Positions 37,149-42,060 of a stretch of DNA of 64,000 nt are shown piece after piece; the stretch's first letter is position 1, and every line of letters begins with the position of its first letter. The position numbers and the translations under genes were made by a program. The notes under the pieces are model-generated. The model did not search any database, was not told the DNA's origin, and worked only from the letters and a program-made list of their open reading frames with translations. The stretch is from Rufibacter ruber (GTDB taxonomy: Bacteria > Bacteroidota > Bacteroidia > Cytophagales > Hymenobacteraceae): assembly GCF_001647275.1 (NCBI RefSeq), contig NZ_LRMM01000015.1, positions 25,924 to 89,923 of the forward strand, given 5' to 3'.

Positions 37149-37192
37149 TTTCCGTTTTGGGGCTGTTTTCATGAAAACAGCCCCAAAGGAAA
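37149..37192. repeat. CTGTTTT palindrome between the Smr gene and rnpB
   Basis: TCCGTTTTGGGGCTGTTTTC, AT, GAAAACAGCCCCAAAGGA. The last copy before an 8-kb interval without any. Confidence 0.92.
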
Positions 37193-37235: not shown

Positions 37236-37690
37236 ATCGGCAAGCCGGCTTATCGCTGCGCCCTTAGGGGCGGAGAGGAAAGTCCGGGCAACGCAGAGCA
37301 TCCTGCTTCCTAACGGGAAGGCACCTGGCGGGCGACGGCCAGGTGACAGCCAGTGCCACAGAAAAGTACCGCCCACTAATTAATTAGGAATGGGGAATTA
37401 GGGATCATTCTTAATTCTCAATTTTAAATTCTTAATTAAAAATGGGTAAGGGTGAAAAGGTGCGGTAAGAGCGCACCAGCGGCTGGGCGACCAGTCCGGC
37501 TGGGTAAACCTCAGGAGTTGAAAGACCAAATAGGCTGGCAGCGTCACTCCCCCGGGAGTGGCTAAGGGCGGCTCGTCCGATGTCAGTGGGTAGGTTGATG
37601 GAGCCCCTCCGTGAGGGCGGGCCTAGATAAATGATAAGCCATCTGCCGCCAAGGCAGAGGACAGAACCCGGCTTACAGGCTTGCCGATTT
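37236..37690 (+). ncRNA. rnpB: RNase P RNA, class A
   Basis: The conserved cores are present: GAGGAAAGTCCGGGC (about 37275), GTGCCACAGAAAA, GGTGAAAAGGTGCGGTAAGAG, GCGACCAGTCC and a 3' AGACAGAACCCGGCTTACAGG-type end (ACAGAACCCGGCTTACAGG near 37660). ATCGGCAAGCC at the 5' end pairs with GGCTTGCCGAT at the 3' end (P1), and a T-run follows at 37687. The P12 region carries an extra AT-rich inverted repeat of about 60 bases (37379-37441). RNase P RNA is the catalytic subunit that matures tRNA 5' ends. Confidence 0.95.
37379..37441 (+). repeat. AT-rich inverted repeat inside rnpB P12
   Basis: AATTAATTAGGAATGGGGAA and TTCTTAATTCTCAATTTTAAAT with a final TCTTAATTA form a long AT-rich hairpin. It resembles the element at 8087-8167. 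The flanking rnpB cores are intact, so it is a loop extension rather than a disruption. Confidence 0.8.
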
Positions 37691-37694
37691 TTTT

Positions 37695-37970
37695 TATTTA
37701 TCCATTCTGGAGAATCTTCTTTAGCCTGGCTTTTGCCTCGCCATTAGCAGCCCCGCACACGAATTTTATTCCTCTCTTTTTCGTGGCCCTGAATCTGGCA
37801 ACTTCAGCAGGGCTACTACCTATTTATCTGATTCTCTTCATCTTGTTAAAGATATATCCTATATTAGGCTGTGTATTACGTTTATCAGCCTAAAACTGGG
37901 GGTAAACCGTATGTTTAGGTACGTATATAGGGGTGATAAACGTGATTATGACGGTTATACGGGAGTTGTG
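37695..37970. other. Leading edge of the cassette island
   Basis: Between the rnpB terminator and the first recombination site. It holds an unsupported 70-codon hydrophobic frame that overlaps the rnpB 3' end and no gene I can defend. Base composition changes here to the AT-rich pattern of the island. The last 60 bases form attC-like site 0. Confidence 0.55.
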
Positions 37971-37981
37971 CGGCATTTTAA
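37912..37981 (+). other. Degenerate attC-like site 0 (left boundary of the cassettes)
   Basis: An imperfect stem (CCGTAT.../...TTATACGG) ends in GTTGTGC at 37975-37981. That box is the exact reverse complement of GCACAAC at 38527-38533 in the next attC, as expected for the two ends of one excised circle. The body is less regular than the other sites. Confidence 0.5.
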
Positions 37982-37999
37982 AATATTAAATAAATTACA

Positions 38000-38518
38000 A
38001 TGGAATATACATCTGTGTACGGCTATATCAAAATCGACCGAGATTATGAAGAATCCGTCAATCATATAAAAAGTTTAGGTAAAGATGATTCATACCCATT
38101 CATAAATACAAGTATGTTTAGTTTTGGAGATTATGAAATCCCATACTATTATGAAAATATGATTTTTGGATTTGCTGCTACCTATAAATATTTTGGATTT
38201 GAATTATCAGACTGGAATAATTTTATTATTAAAATTGAGAATATTCTTAGGAATGTTGATTTTGAGAATGCTCAATTTCATATTGAAAGTTCTTTTGGAG
38301 ATTTTACATTATTTTGGACTACACAAGGTCCTTCTTTATCAGGTAAAGAACATGAAGAAGAGTACCTTAAAGAATATTTATTAACTAAAACTGACGAATG
38401 GTATTTTGGCTTTGGTAAAAGGAGCGTTTTTACTGGCTATATAGAAAGTTTAGAAGACTATGAAGATTTAAGGAATGATAAAACTCTCGGATTTAGTTAT
38501 CCTGTACCTCTGAAATAA
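38000..38518 (+). CDS. Cassette gene 1: protein of unknown function
   Basis: 172 residues, acidic, rich in Tyr/Phe (YGYIKIDRDYEESVNHIKSLG, FGDYEIPYYYENMIFGF, FTLFWTTQGPSL). No signal peptide or membrane segment. The look recalls SMI1/KNR4- or Imm-type small cytoplasmic proteins, but no motif settles it. It is much more A+T-rich than the surrounding chromosome and fills nearly the whole space between attC-like sites 0 and 1, starting 19 bp after the recombination box. Confidence 0.75.
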   Translation: MEYTSVYGYIKIDRDYEESVNHIKSLGKDDSYPFINTSMFSFGDYEIPYYYENMIFGFAATYKYFGFELSDWNNFIIKIENILRNVDFENAQFHIESSFGDFTLFWTTQGPSLSGKEHEEEYLKEYLLTKTDEWYFGFGKRSVFTGYIESLEDYEDLRNDKTLGFSYPVPLK

Positions 38519-38525
38519 AAACGAA

Positions 38526-38595
38526 CGCACAACAAGGCATAAACGTCAGCCTTCGGCCGACGGCCTCGCCCGTCGTTTATGCTAGACCGTTAGAC
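38526..38595 (+). other. attC-like site 1
   Basis: R''-type box GCACAAC (38527), inner arms GCATAAACG/CGTTTATGC, central TCGGCCGACGGCCT, and R'-type box GTTAGAC (38589-38595). About 70 bp. Confidence 0.82.
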
Positions 38596-38616
38596 AGCAT
38601 TTATAATAAATCATCA

Positions 38617-39126
38617 ATGAAAAAACTCATAATCTTAGCCACTTTCTCAACATTTCTAAATTCATGCGCTAAACCTGAAGCAGCTAACAATCAAGCTCCT
38701 ATATCAATAAGTGGTACGGATTCTTTGGCAAGTAAATCTCCTTTGATGAAAGCGTCCTTACCAGAGGAAGAAGAATCATCGGACAATTCCCAAAAACAAG
38801 AAAAAAGGGATAAACAGGTAAGTACCGCCGCTGAACTGCAAGGAAAATGGGTGCATGAAAGTGATAGTCTAGCCTATTTAAATATAACTGGCTCAAGCTG
38901 GGTTTCAGGATATGAAGGTGAAGAAGAGACACAGGACAATAAATACACATATACTCTCACCGATAAACTTCCTCAATTTGTTGACCCAGAGGTGAAAGCA
39001 GAGTTTATAGTTTTGTCTAATAAGAATGACACCATGTACTATGAACTAAATGGTGTCTCAAAGGAAACGCTAAGCCTCACATATTATCCAATGATGAAAC
39101 TTCATGTCTATAAAAGAAAGAAATAA
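38617..39126 (+). CDS. Cassette gene 2: predicted lipoprotein
   Basis: 169 residues. Signal peptide KKLIILATFSTFLNSC with Cys near residue 17, then low-complexity polar linker (ESSDNSQKQEKRDKQ) and a small domain AAELQGKWVHESDSLAYLNITGSSW...YTYTLTDKLPQFVD, lipocalin-like in feel. Family not recognised. It starts 22 bp after box GTTAGAC, which reads GTTAGACAGC and is the exact 10-base complement of GCTGTCTAAC at its own downstream attC. Confidence 0.8.
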   Translation: MKKLIILATFSTFLNSCAKPEAANNQAPISISGTDSLASKSPLMKASLPEEEESSDNSQKQEKRDKQVSTAAELQGKWVHESDSLAYLNITGSSWVSGYEGEEETQDNKYTYTLTDKLPQFVDPEVKAEFIVLSNKNDTMYYELNGVSKETLSLTYYPMMKLHVYKRKK

Positions 39127-39130
39127 AAAC

Positions 39131-39202
39131 GCTGTCTAACAACACCTAAACGTCAGCCATCGGCCGACGGCCTTGCCCGTCGTTTACACGAGACCATTGG
39201 CA
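39131..39202 (+). other. attC-like site 2
   Basis: GCTGTCTAAC at the left, TAAACG/CGTTTA inner arms, CGGCCGACGGCC core, and right box ATTGGCA (39196), where the first base is A instead of the canonical G. Confidence 0.8.
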
Positions 39203-39214
39203 AAAATTTGATAT

Positions 39215-39820
39215 ATGAAAAAGGTATTACAAATAAGTTTTCTGCTCACCATCTTTGTTGGTTGCAACTCTTCGTATATCCACTCTTCTACATCGCACTA
39301 TGAAGCTATTAACGAAGGGGACTTATATTTCCCATTGAAACCAGATAGTGTTGAAGGTCAAGAAAATGACAAACTGATTACTTTTATGAACAAATGGTAT
39401 TCAGAAAATATGGTCAGACTGAAAGAACCTGTCTTGTATAAACATACCGGTAGAGACTTTAATGTTTTCAGATTTACCAAAATCGGGACATGGGGTGAAT
39501 CAACCTCCTACAGGATAGAAAAGACGGATTCAAATGTATCGATTGTTAAACGCACAAAGGACTTGCCTGGAAATTTGATTGCTGATGAAAAGAAGTTATT
39601 GAGCAAAGAAAATTGGAGCGCATTAGAGGCAAGAATACAATCAATAGCTTTCTGGCATTTAAACACTCACGGTGAGCGAGGTCTCGACGGGGAGGAATGG
39701 ATATTGGAAGGTCTAGATGATGACAAGTATCATTTTGTGATAAGATGGAGTCCTGACCTTCATGGTGATAAAGAGTTTGTAAAAGCTTGTAACTTATTTG
39801 AAGATTTGTTTAAAAAATAA
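39215..39820 (+). CDS. Cassette gene 3: predicted lipoprotein
   Basis: 201 residues with signal peptide VLQISFLLTIFVGC, then NSSYIHSSTSHYEAINEGD. The mature region is mixed alpha/beta (TGRDFNVFRFTKIGTWGESTSYRIEK, LEARIQSIAFWHLNTHGERGLDGEEWILEGLDDDKYHFVIRWSP), which recalls small secreted proteins of unknown role. It is bounded by attC-like sites 2 and 3. Confidence 0.8.
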   Translation: MKKVLQISFLLTIFVGCNSSYIHSSTSHYEAINEGDLYFPLKPDSVEGQENDKLITFMNKWYSENMVRLKEPVLYKHTGRDFNVFRFTKIGTWGESTSYRIEKTDSNVSIVKRTKDLPGNLIADEKKLLSKENWSALEARIQSIAFWHLNTHGERGLDGEEWILEGLDDDKYHFVIRWSPDLHGDKEFVKACNLFEDLFKK

Positions 39821-39828
39821 AGAAAAAC

Positions 39829-39900
39829 TCTTGCCAACACTGTATAAACGCCAGCTTCGGCCGACGGCCTCGCCGTCGTTTATACTAGTCCGTTGGCAGT
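39829..39900 (+). other. attC-like site 3
   Basis: TTGCCAAC (39831) pairs with cassette start TTGGCAA at 39197, inner arms GTATAAACG/CGTTTATAC, core TCGGCCGACGGCCT, right box GTTGGCA (39892-39898). Confidence 0.85.
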
Positions 39901-39910
39901 AAGTTATAAT

Positions 39911-40369
39911 ATGAAGAAACTAATTCTTTTAACTTATCTAATTGTAGTAATAGCGACAGATTCTATTGCGTGTAAATGCGGGATTTATACAACATCTCTT
40001 CAAGCAGCTACTCAAGAGCGCTATAATTCTTCGGACTTTGTAATATCGGCAAAGGTGGAGCTTGTTAGAGACAGCTTGACAAAAGGAAACTACTTTATGG
40101 AACCAGGACCTTATTGGCGGAAAGGTGGCTATAACGTAGTAATAAATGTAAAAAAAGCCTACAAAGGAGAAATAAAGACTGATAAAATTGAAATTACTCC
40201 AAGCTGGTTGAATTGCAGCCAATATTTCAAAATAGGAGATACATATATAATTTTTGGGTACATCAATAAAAAGGGTGAGTACACAACTGACATATGCTCA
40301 ATGAATTTCTCAACAGATCAAAAAGATAGGTTGAGGGCGTTTAAAAAAATAAAGAAGAAGAAAACCTAA
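39911..40369 (+). CDS. Cassette gene 4: secreted TIMP/NTR-like protein
   Basis: 152 residues from ATG 39911. Signal peptide LILLTYLIVVIATDSIA leads straight into CKCGIY, so the mature protein starts Cys-x-Cys, as in netrin/TIMP modules. It continues SDFVISAKVELVRDS, YNVVINVKKAYKGEIKTDKIEITPSWLNCSQYFKIGDTYIIFGYINKKG and a final TDICSMNF, four to five Cys in the order expected for an NTR-type OB fold. Function in bacteria is unknown. It lies between attC-like sites 3 and 4. Confidence 0.75.
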   Translation: MKKLILLTYLIVVIATDSIACKCGIYTTSLQAATQERYNSSDFVISAKVELVRDSLTKGNYFMEPGPYWRKGGYNVVINVKKAYKGEIKTDKIEITPSWLNCSQYFKIGDTYIIFGYINKKGEYTTDICSMNFSTDQKDRLRAFKKIKKKKT

Positions 40370-40440
40370 TGCTAACAAGGTGCATAAGTCATGCTACGGC
40401 CGACGGCCTTGCACGCCTCATGCACTAGACGTTGGGGTTA
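40370..40440 (+). other. attC-like site 4
   Basis: TGCTAAC (40370), inner arms GTGCATAAG/CCTCATGCAC, core CGGCCGACGGCC, right box GTTGGGG (40431-40437). Confidence 0.82.
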
Positions 40441-40453
40441 ATTAAAAATATAA

Positions 40454-40822
40454 ATGTTCGGACTATTTGATAAGAGAACTTCTAAAATTGAATTCACCGA
40501 AGAAAGTGAGGAGAAGTTCAACCACCTGTTGACAGAAATCTATGAAATCCTTCGCGACTCAGCATATACAATTCAGGCGGACAGGATAAAAGAAATCTTG
40601 TTCGCTGTTCAAAAAGAAGACCCCGAATTATTTGAGCAGAAAGTGATTTCTGCAGAACTACTTGGTGGTGCAGGTTCTGTAGTGGACGTTTGGATTGAGA
40701 AAGAAGAGAAAATGAAAAGAATGGATTCGTTAATGAACGACTTCTTAGAACTTACTTTTAAATCGGGGTTGAATCAAAGAGCTTTAAAAGCAAGAATGAC
40801 TAGAAAAATGAAAAACAACTAA
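40454..40822 (+). CDS. Cassette gene 5: small cytoplasmic helical protein
   Basis: 122 residues, no signal peptide: MFGLFDKRTSKIEF then EEKFNHLLTEIYEILRDSAYTIQADRIKEIL and a charged helical C-terminus KEEKMKRMDSLMNDFLE. No family recognised. It starts 17 bp after the recombination box of attC-like site 4 and runs into the truncated attC 5. Confidence 0.72.
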   Translation: MFGLFDKRTSKIEFTEESEEKFNHLLTEIYEILRDSAYTIQADRIKEILFAVQKEDPELFEQKVISAELLGGAGSVVDVWIEKEEKMKRMDSLMNDFLELTFKSGLNQRALKARMTRKMKNN

Positions 40823-40840
40823 CCCCTAACATTGTGTTCT
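40823..40840 (+). other. Truncated attC-like site 5, interrupted by IS110
   Basis: CCCCTAACATTGTG has the R''-type box CCCTAAC and partly matches the cassette start GTTGGGGTTA, but no core or right box follows. The sequence changes to IS110-type non-coding end within about 10 bases. Confidence 0.6.
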
Positions 40841-40918
40841 ATGGTCAAAGCAAGTAAAAGCGCATAAATTTCCCAAGAACTTCTCCCAACCTACTTCATG
40901 GATTTGTAGGCATACGCA

Positions 40919-41914
40919 TTACGTCTGCAGGCACACGTAGGGCGTGTTGCGCTCGATGACGGCGAACATGCGGCTGACGATCTTGTTCTTGATGGCGTTG
41001 AGCACGGCCATGGGGTGCTTGCCCTCGCCCGTCTTCCTCTCATAGTACTTGCGGTACTCGTTGCCGGCCTTGATGCTGGCCAGAGCGCCCATGGTCAAGA
41101 GGTCCTTTATCTTCTTGTTGGCGATCTTTGAGACCTTCGTCCTCCCCCTGACGCTGGAGCCGGAGGAGTTCTTGAACGGCGCGAGCCCGGCGTAGCAGGA
41201 GAACTTGCGTCAGGAGGGGAACCGGGTGAAGCCCCTGGTGAGGATGAGCATCTGGGTCGCCGTCTGCTCGCCCACGCCCGGCACTGAGCACAGGAGCCCC
41301 TTCTTCTCCCTCAGCTCCCTCTGGGCCTCTATCAGGCGGTTTATCTCCGCCTGCACCTCCTTCAGCTTCCTGTCCAGAAGGCAGACCATCTCCTTCTCGA
41401 TTCTCAGGGGAAACCTCACGTCCAGGCAGCGTCCCAACACTTTCAGCTCCCTGATGCGCGCCTTGTGGGCCGATTTCTCCTTCAGCAGCAGCTCGCGCTG
41501 GGAGAAGAGCTGGCGCAACTCCAGCAGCAGGTCGGGGGCCGCCCCGTTGAAGCTCAGCTCCTCCAGGTTCCTTTTCAGGTAACGGGCTATCAGCAGCGAA
41601 TCAGCCTTATCGTCCTTGCCCCGCACGGTGCCCATTGAGCGCCTGATGCGGCAGGCGTTCTCCGAGACATACTTAAGCTTCAGCTCGGAGAGGAACCTGC
41701 CCAGGCCGACGGAGTAGACGCCCGTGTCCTCAAACCCGAACACCGCCCCACAGGTCGCATACGCGTTAAACTTCCCTACCCACCTGAGCAGCTGGCCGAA
41801 GCCCACCTTGTTGTTCTTGAATTGTTGGTGGGCGTGGTCACCATTAGGGAAAAGCACGGTGGCATCCAGCACAAGTTTGCTGACGTCAATGCCAACGGAA
41901 AGGTTTTTCTCCAT
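40919..41914 (-). pseudogene. IS110 transposase with an in-frame TGA
   Basis: From ATG 41914 (MEKNLSVGIDVSKLVLDATV, with the first catalytic Asp), the frame runs through RGKDDKADSLLIARYL, a helical linker (KEKSAHKARIRELK), VPGVGEQTATQMLILTRGF, then an in-frame TGA at 41210-41212. It continues in the same frame RKFSCYAGLAPFKNSSGSS, with the Ser expected in the C-terminal domain, to TAA 40919. The TGA separates FTRFPS from RKFSCYAGLAP, an otherwise continuous family motif, so it is a point nonsense change (or read-through/sequence error). About 331 codons in total, normal length. Confidence 0.88.
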
Positions 41915-42060
41915 ATCTTTCTCTTGGTTAAAAGAAGGTTGAACAACTGCCACCTATATGAGGCATGAGAGCCTGGTGTTCTATCTGGTCAAGGTTCAAC
42001 CGAAGGGAACAGGGAGAGGACTAACACAATGTAGGGGAATAGAATCCTATGTAAACGTGT
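41915..42060 (-). ncRNA. Candidate bridge RNA region of the IS110 element
   Basis: In the IS110 group the left non-coding end encodes a bridge RNA whose two loops match target and donor DNA. Read on the minus strand, this end has CCCCTACATTGTGTTAG (42036-42020), close to the attC 5 sequence CCCCTAACATTGTGTT (40823-40838). Nearer the transposase it has GACCAGATAGAACACC (41994-41979), close to the right-end junction GACCATAGAACAC (minus strand of 40834-40846). The order (target-like first, donor-like second) fits the known layout. Loop structures were not folded. Confidence 0.5.

What the first reader, a model, noticed from the sequence alone, without database searches (positions are those of the whole stretch)
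37912..40840. Array of integron-type gene cassettes without an integrase in the window
Five small AT-rich genes (38000, 38617, 39215, 39911, 40454), all rightward, are separated by about 70-bp imperfect palindromes sharing CGGCCGACGGCC, inner arms like GTATAAACG/CGTTTATAC and outer GTTRRRY / RYYYAAC-type boxes. The decisive point is that each cassette's first bases complement the left box of its own downstream site, as needed if each circularises: GTTAGACAGC (38589) with GCTGTCTAAC (39131), 10 of 10; GTTGTGCG (37975) with CGCACAAC (38526), 8 of 8; TTGGCAA (39197) with TTGCCAA (39831). This is the geometry of attC recombination, and the site family is uniform as in sedentary chromosomal integrons. 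No intI-like frame is in the window, so it would be a CALIN-type cluster. It begins right behind rnpB.
Basis: partly seen in the sequence, partly recalled or inferred. Interest (0 to 1): 0.9.

Follow-up and report, generated by a model that had tools for sequence, protein, structure and literature searches.

The report
Many-dock integron with non-standard integrase
This stretch is a row of gene cassettes headed by a predicted docking site, one of many such rows in the genome of a Rufibacter relative, and all are likely served by a single recombinase encoded elsewhere that lacks the part thought essential for this kind of gene capture.

Summary
In detail: four complete attC-type sites separate five AT-rich genes, and cassette starts complement the left box of their own downstream site. 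It is not a bare CALIN. A 42-bp attI-like core (37926-37967) heads the array; nine copies lie in this genome, one beside a tyrosine recombinase on contig C5 that is followed by cassettes with the same attC family. Fifty strong attC matches lie on 17 contigs. In 150 family genomes, all 66 with this recombinase have the attC family, against 11 of the other 84. Cassette 2 has a 98% identical copy in another array, with identity switching at the G^TT crossover. The recombinase keeps its catalytic residues but lacks both inserts typical of integron integrases (I2/patch region), has about 210 extra N-terminal residues, and falls outside the sampled IntI clade. Sixty of 63 sites fold better on the bottom strand; 13 of 17 pairs covary. 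So it works like an integron but fails a defining test of the family. That the C5 enzyme acts on this array in trans is inferred; independent origin against loss of the IntI domain is unresolved (AU p 0.26).

The parts
37237..37691 (+). rnpB (RNase P RNA, class A), left neighbour of the array
   Evidence: Rfam RF00010, 268.5 bits
37853..37967 (+). extended attI module (about 115 bp) shared with C87, C113, C37, C68, C160
   Evidence: 77-85% identity over 116-118 bp
37926..37967 (+). attI-like core, ending in the crossover triplet G^TT at 37965
   Evidence: 42 bp, 81% identical to the site about 100 bp behind the integrase stop on C5; 9 pattern copies in the genome, 0 in the reversed control
37966..38589 (+). 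cassette 1 (ORF 38000-38518, 172 aa, no family found)
38527..38595 (+). attC 1 (R'' GCACAAC, R' GTTAGAC)
   Evidence: R1 86.5 bits; member of R1's training set
38590..39196 (+). cassette 2 (ORF 38617-39126, 169 aa, probable lipoprotein by its start); second copy on contig C47
   Evidence: 98% over 552 bp; junctions read
39134..39202 (+). attC 2 (R'' GTCTAAC, R' ATTGGCA)
   Evidence: R1 81.6 bits; training set
39197..39892 (+). cassette 3 (ORF 39215-39820, 201 aa)
39832..39898 (+). attC 3 (R'' TGCCAAC, R' GTTGGCA)
   Evidence: R1 81.0 bits; training set; fold z -5.6 on the bottom and -5.5 on the top strand
39893..40431 (+). cassette 4 (ORF 39911-40369, 152 aa)
40370..40437 (+). attC 4 (R'' TGCTAAC, R' GTTGGGG)
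   Evidence: R1 81.9 bits; training set
40432..40837 (+). cassette 5, truncated (ORF 40454-40822, 122 aa); relative with a complete site in G060
   Evidence: 86% identity to G060:C24 (L251), break after ATTGTGT
40838..42022 (-). IS110-type remnant (transposase frames 41210-41953 and 40919-41098) standing where the rest of attC 5 should be; ends estimated
   Evidence: PF01548, 67.5 bits; single copy in the genome; CCCCTAACATTGTGTT / AACACAATGTAGGGG arms on its two sides

Best explanation
The array is likely a satellite platform of an integron-like system: its attC-bounded cassettes, a copy of the integrase-linked attI sequence at its head and a second copy of one cassette elsewhere are seen directly, and a single tyrosine recombinase encoded on contig C5, without the IntI-specific domain, would load and shuffle it in trans. 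Proposed mechanism: the recombinase binds the shared TAAACG-type box in double-stranded attI and in the folded bottom strand of attC, cuts next to the G^TT triplet, and joins a circular cassette to attI or to another attC. Shown: anatomy of both sites, cassette starts matched to their own R'' boxes, covariation of the hairpin, bottom-strand preference, one match of this integrase family against nine attI cores in the genome, and cassette copies whose junctions lie at G^TT. Inferred: that this enzyme is the one that acts, that it acts in trans on the window's array, and that attC is used single-stranded although the enzyme lacks the I2/patch region.
For: attC family: 9 sites gave model R1, 8 of 17 pairs with changes on both sides; 65 sites gave R2, 13 of 17 pairs, 92.6% of cells paired, every slid control under 39%; a G.T wobble in 63 of 64 rows; 60 of 63 sites (2 of 65 rows under 60 nt dropped) fold better on the bottom strand, mean -3.0 kcal/mol. 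Genome: 56 R1 hits at E<=0.01, 50 of them at E<=6e-9, on 17 contigs. attI: 9 copies, 0 in the control; in the 6 of 19 regions where attI and attC are both visible attI points into the array. Integrase C5: R348, K373, H437, R440, H463, Y472 invariant in 14 rows, own included; attI about 100-120 bp behind its stop in 24 of 30 loci by a fuzzy pattern (no shuffled control run), and a related dyad at the same place by eye in the other 6. Co-occurrence 66/66 against 11/84, Fisher p 2e-31, not corrected for relatedness. Mobility: cassette 2 copy on C47, identity jumps at GTTAGAC and falls inside the next site; cassette 5 in another species with a jump at GTTGGGG. No integrase remnant in 20 other regions or the window. 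Trans copies of attI in two complete relatives: 44/44 and 27/28 bases in G051, 35 bp at 86% in G012.
Against: No recombination was assayed. The genome is a 166-contig draft, so the distance of C5 from the window is unknown and an unassembled second integrase cannot be excluded (though G012, G022 and G051, in 1-2 contigs, also show one integrase match each). In those three genomes only 3 of 17 dispersed array starts that I fetched show a recognisable attI copy (1/5, 0/8, 2/4), and in this genome only 6 of 19 regions, so attI-headed satellites are not the rule everywhere. 11 of 77 attC-positive genomes have no integrase match of this type, and some of the 66 matches are fragments (e.g. G034, G106). 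The known ssDNA-handling element of integron integrases is missing. The strict GTTRRRY box is met in only 10 of the 34 cassettes (my count from its list), though GTT is there in 33.
Confidence: 0.82

Rival explanations
1. The window's array is a plain relict (CALIN): cassettes and an attI copy left behind by duplication or loss of an integrase, no longer moved by anything.
For: No integrase on the contig and no remnant; IS110 remnant in the last attC; most dispersed arrays of complete relatives lack a visible attI (14 of 17 starts).
Against: The four attC sites score as high as those beside the integrase (81-87 against 67-85 bits, all in the model's training set); cassette 2 is 98% identical to a copy in another array, so movement was recent; the attI core keeps its sequence.
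Confidence: 0.12
2. The cassettes are moved by a canonical IntI supplied by another replicon or by a past visitor, and the C5 recombinase is an unrelated phage- or Xer-type enzyme that happens to sit there.
For: Canonical IntI is common elsewhere in the phylum (105 of 395 genomes over cut-off).
Against: No TIGR02249 match over cut-off in this genome; none of this attC family at 32 canonical intI loci, with about 1.5 kb of flank for 30 and 0.5 kb for 2; all 66 genomes with the C5-type enzyme have this attC family, and in the C5 locus the array lies directly behind it.
Confidence: 0.03
3. The palindromes are ordinary intergenic repeats or terminators and no recombination takes place.
For: They are palindromic and lie between genes.
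Against: Cassette start/R'' complementarity across 34 cassettes, junctions of moved copies at G^TT, the attI link.
Confidence: 0.01

Closest known systems
Sedentary chromosomal integrons with canonical IntI (e.g. Vibrio)
   Same: attI next to an integrase gene, array of small cassettes, attC-type folded sites of one family, R''/R' boxes from the same cassette, crossover at G^TT, bottom strand folds better (traits of the known class recalled or from the passages read)
   Different: integrase lacks both IntI-specific inserts, has about 210 extra N-terminal residues, does not group with the IntI rows sampled; several attI cores per genome with one integrase match
Integrons of Treponema ('reverse' integrons)
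   Same: integrase transcribed towards attI and in the direction of the cassettes (passages of PMC3607928)
   Different: that paper calls the Treponema gene intI; here the enzyme lacks the IntI domain
CALIN (clusters of attC sites lacking an integron integrase; IntegronFinder)
   Same: no integrase beside the window's array
   Different: the array has an attI-like head matching an integrase-linked attI in the same genome
XerA / archaeal Xer recombinases and the 360-470 aa Xer-like paralogues of g6 genomes (probably Hymenobacter, my guess)
   Different: g6 genomes of the sample carry no attC of this family, apart from one hit in G107
IS1111-attC insertion sequences (IS110/IS1111-type elements that target attC; the name was seen in a search listing, the rest is recalled)
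   Same: an IS110-type transposase remnant sits in the last attC
   Different: only one copy, broken frames, so targeting is not shown

Membership tests
Integron (canonical, IntI-based) | tyrosine recombinase with complete catalytic residues | tested here: met
   PF00589 139 bits; R348, K373, H437, R440, H463, Y472 invariant in 14 rows
Integron (canonical, IntI-based) | IntI-specific additional domain around patch III / I2 helix | tested here: not met
   query residues 457|458 adjoin IntI4 residues 206|248; both inserts absent in the alignment with IntI rows; TIGR02249 202 bits against a cut-off of 265
Integron (canonical, IntI-based) | integrase falls in the IntI clade | tested here: inconclusive
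   20 IntI rows form a clade without it, support 100/99, but IntI plus this lineage as one clade is not rejected (AU p 0.258)
Integron (canonical, IntI-based) | attI beside the integrase gene | tested here: met
   by sequence only; recombination at it not assayed
Integron (canonical, IntI-based) | cassettes bounded by attC sites with imperfect-palindrome bottom-strand fold | tested here: met
   IntegronFinder's own attC model was not available
Integron (canonical, IntI-based) | extrahelical bases in attC | tested here: inconclusive
   the folded bottom strand of attC 3 has a GG bulge and a single A bulge; their role is untested
Integron (canonical, IntI-based) | cassette movement with crossover at G^TT | tested here: met
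   by comparison only: junctions of cassette 2 and cassette 5 copies
Integron (canonical, IntI-based) | platform promoter (Pc) facing the cassettes | tested here: inconclusive
   no sigma-70-type match on the + strand at 37690-38100; the scan says that other promoter types are not covered
CALIN | two or more attC sites without an integrase nearby | tested here: met
   four attC; no integrase match on the contig
CALIN | no integron platform (attI) at the array | tested here: not met
   attI-like core 37926-37967; this row is my reading of the term, the definitions in the passages name the missing integrase only

The most novel reading that the evidence does not exclude
A second, IntI-independent origin of integrons: a XerA-like recombinase of Rufibacter, Pontibacter and Adhaeribacter relatives, without the I2/patch element, captures ssDNA-folded cassettes and runs a genome-wide network of several attI docks and dozens of cassettes from one gene.
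Probability: 0.45. Interest if true: 0.95.

Novelty: new variant of a known kind. Interest (0 to 1): 0.86.

Why it matters
Integron integrases are held to have moved from double- to single-stranded DNA recombination by gaining the I2 helix (abstract of PMC7790495), and IntI is told from other integrases by its extra domain (passage of PMC9024848). A whole lineage with hairpin-type attC sites under covariation but without that domain makes the claim testable in nature and suggests that such integrons are overlooked: the passage of that paper names one complete integron in Bacteroidetes outside Chlorobi and Ignavibacteriae (Salinibacter ruber M1), while here 66 of 150 sampled family genomes carry this enzyme, some as fragments, with this attC family. 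Several attI sites per integrase would also be an unusual arrangement, letting one enzyme feed many sites.

Tried and rejected
Integrase hidden in the window: no PF00589 match on contig C54. Canonical IntI elsewhere in the genome: nine TIGR02249 stretches, none over cut-off. Cassette genes in Pfam, NCBIfam and PADLOC: none for the window's five in Pfam or PADLOC, and one 19-bit NCBIfam match (PuhA, cut-off 200) for cassette 5. The attI pattern of this genome hardly carries over to relatives: 30 matches with 2-3 mismatches in 20 of 149 relatives against 7 in the reversed control; each lineage seems to have its own attI arms, hence the within-genome comparison. IntI-type loci do not carry this attC family (0 of 32). 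The first structure model was too poor in the catalytic half (mean pLDDT 64); its search is not used. The second (pLDDT 86) is. No solved relative was listed for the N-terminal 210 residues, which the tool says are barely tested. Independent origin of the integrase: compatible with the tree but not established. Literature: the ten searches of the PMC open library. Integron with gene cassette and Rufibacter: 0 papers. Integron integrase with Cytophagales: 1, on manured soil, by its title. Integron with Hymenobacter: 9, seen as a listing only, none opened. For Pontibacter the 15 papers listed of 502 have 0 occurrences of the name; the rest were not seen. Subscription papers and preprints are not covered, so absence in print is not shown.
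Full report
WHAT IS THERE. Behind rnpB (37237-37691) lie five rightward genes of 29-37% GC in a window of 50%, separated by four sites of 67-69 bp that share CGGCCGACGGCC. Each site has an R'' box, an L'' arm, an apex GGCC-GTC-GGCC on the bottom strand, an L' arm and an R' box. All four fold better on the bottom strand with DNA parameters (-14.8, -15.0, -22.0, -14.5 against -11.2, -8.8, -19.8, -8.7 kcal/mol). attC 2 does not fold into the expected hairpin in its best structure on either strand. Cassette starts complement the R'' box of the site behind them.

STATISTICS OF THE BOXES. Over 34 cassettes from 11 regions of this genome, the first seven bases match their own R'' in 215 of 238 positions, 24 of 34 perfectly; in 10,000 shuffles the mean was 159 and the maximum 185. 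The script picked a wrong AAC for the window's first cassette and a shifted triplet for one on C5, so 24 is a floor. 33 of 34 cassettes start with GTT, one (window 39196) with ATT; 10 of 34 fit GTTRRRY strictly (my count from that list).

THE SITE FAMILY. A covariance model of nine sites (R1) found 56 matches at E<=0.01 in this genome, 50 at E<=6e-9, on 17 contigs (150 of 438 candidates scored, so a lower bound; nine of the 50 trained the model). A second model from 65 sites (R2; 50 sites of this genome and 15 of relatives) has both-sided changes in 13 of 17 pairs, 92.6% of cells paired against 82% in shuffles and under 39% in slid controls. The alignment was fitted to the structure, which favours it. 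One pair is G.T in 63 of 64 rows, which on the top strand is an A.C mismatch; 60 of 63 sites (2 of 65 rows under 60 nt dropped) fold better on the bottom strand. This is the strand polarity expected of attC.

THE INTEGRASE AND ATTI. Contig C5 (11,199 bp) carries a tyrosine recombinase of about 490 aa (start M at L018 5192, taken as the natural start because relatives' matches begin there), transcribed towards five complete attC sites and their cassettes, beside genes that read as dnaB-like and mpl-like (names mine). Between gene and first cassette is TATAGTGGGGATAAACGTAATAGGTACGGTTATACGGTAGTT, 81% identical over 42 bp to the window's 37926-37967. The pattern occurs nine times in the genome and never in the reversed control. 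In 6 of 19 regions with attC the attI core is seen and points into the array; the other three copies (C87, C37, C160) have 125, 524 and 125 bases of contig left in the array's direction. C5, C110 and C156 share only 42-49 bp with the others; the other six share about 115-185 bp. No integrase remnant was found by tblastn in 20 other regions or in the window, and the genome has one match to this integrase at E<=1e-40.

RELATIVES. In 150 family genomes 76 have a match to the integrase; 10 of these (genus code g6) are 44-48% identical over the catalytic half only and I do not count them. All 66 others, some of them fragments, have R2 attC sites, against 11 of the remaining 84 (handles typed from those outputs). 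The g5 and g6 genomes have no match but one hit in G107. Names from protein records: Rufibacter, Nibribacter, Pontibacter, Adhaeribacter, Botryobacter; among the names shown for the 120 listed proteins none says integron (many have no name). Eight genomes searched with the laxer setting have 23-68 sites each. attI behind the integrase stop: 24 of 30 loci by fuzzy pattern without a shuffled control, 6 by eye. attI copies away from the integrase: G051 44/44 and 27/28 bases, G012 35 bp at 86% and a 16-bp part elsewhere, none in G022; 3 of 17 starts fetched. Two genomes, G017 and G048, have a divergent enzyme (40% identity) with the same attC family behind it and a dyad attI.

CASSETTE MOVEMENT. 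Cassette 2 recurs on C47: 98% over 552 bp, while the upstream attC of the two arrays differs; the switch is at GTTAGAC, and identity falls inside the next site. Cassette 5 recurs at 86% in G060, another species of the genus, again switching at GTTGGGG. At the rnpB locus of ten Rufibacter-clade genomes this array is absent from the 8-kb flanks; R. roseus has another array there, with seven attC matches, facing rnpB.

HOW IT MOST LIKELY WORKS. attI and attC share a box of type GTATAAACG (attI also GATAAACGT) a few bases from the crossover triplet; this is my reading of the sequences. I infer that the recombinase binds this box in double-stranded attI and in the folded bottom strand of attC, cleaves at the triplet and joins circles to either site, with one gene serving all platforms. 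The covarying hairpin with a fixed wobble argues for use as a folded strand; but the enzyme lacks the known element for it, so either another part (the roughly 210 N-terminal residues are a candidate) takes its place or the hairpin is read differently.

KNOWN OR NEW. Canonical integrases occur elsewhere in this phylum (105 of 395 genomes over the TIGR02249 cut-off; [quoted passage not shown] Bacteroidota are named among phyla with integrons in others (passages of PMC8618304, PMC9668308 and PMC2426708). I found no open-licence paper on integrons in this family in searches, seen as listings. It works like an integron; it is not filed as a canonical one, because the defining domain was tested and not met.

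Noticed in passing
window 40823-42038: An IS110-type transposase remnant (frames 41210-41953 and 40919-41098, minus) stands in the last attC; CCCCTAACATTGTGTT on its left and AACACAATGTAGGGG on its right look like the two arms of that site, without its middle. Single copy in the genome.
   Followed up: partly
L194 9776-15140 (Rufibacter roseus): A different cassette array with seven attC matches lies right behind rnpB in the opposite direction, so the rnpB flank may be a favoured place for such arrays.
   Followed up: partly
window 37374-37444: rnpB carries an AT-rich stretch (TTAATTAGGAATGGGGAATTAGGG...) that is missing in at least two relatives, L188 and L191, whose match breaks between 37373 and 37445.
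   Followed up: no
L018 176-550 and 2731-3102; 683-1252 and 1990-2568: Two cassettes of the C5 array encode look-alike small lipoprotein-like proteins, and two others match NCBIfam Riean_0653.
   Followed up: no
G000 contigs C37 4381 and C156 90726; C87 62256 and C160 98: The first cassettes behind two different attI copies look alike in each of these two pairs (alignment, by eye).
   Followed up: no
G017:C1:2776543-2777892 (L235) and G048:C10:175906-177312 (L236): A divergent integrase (40% identity) with its own dyadic attI-like site but the same attC family.
   Followed up: partly
window 37149-37187 and L018 5686-5716, 7459-7494, 10727-10772: A recurring intergenic inverted repeat of the type TTTCCGTTTTGGGGCTGTTTTC...GAAAACAGCCCCAAA in both contigs.
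   Followed up: no
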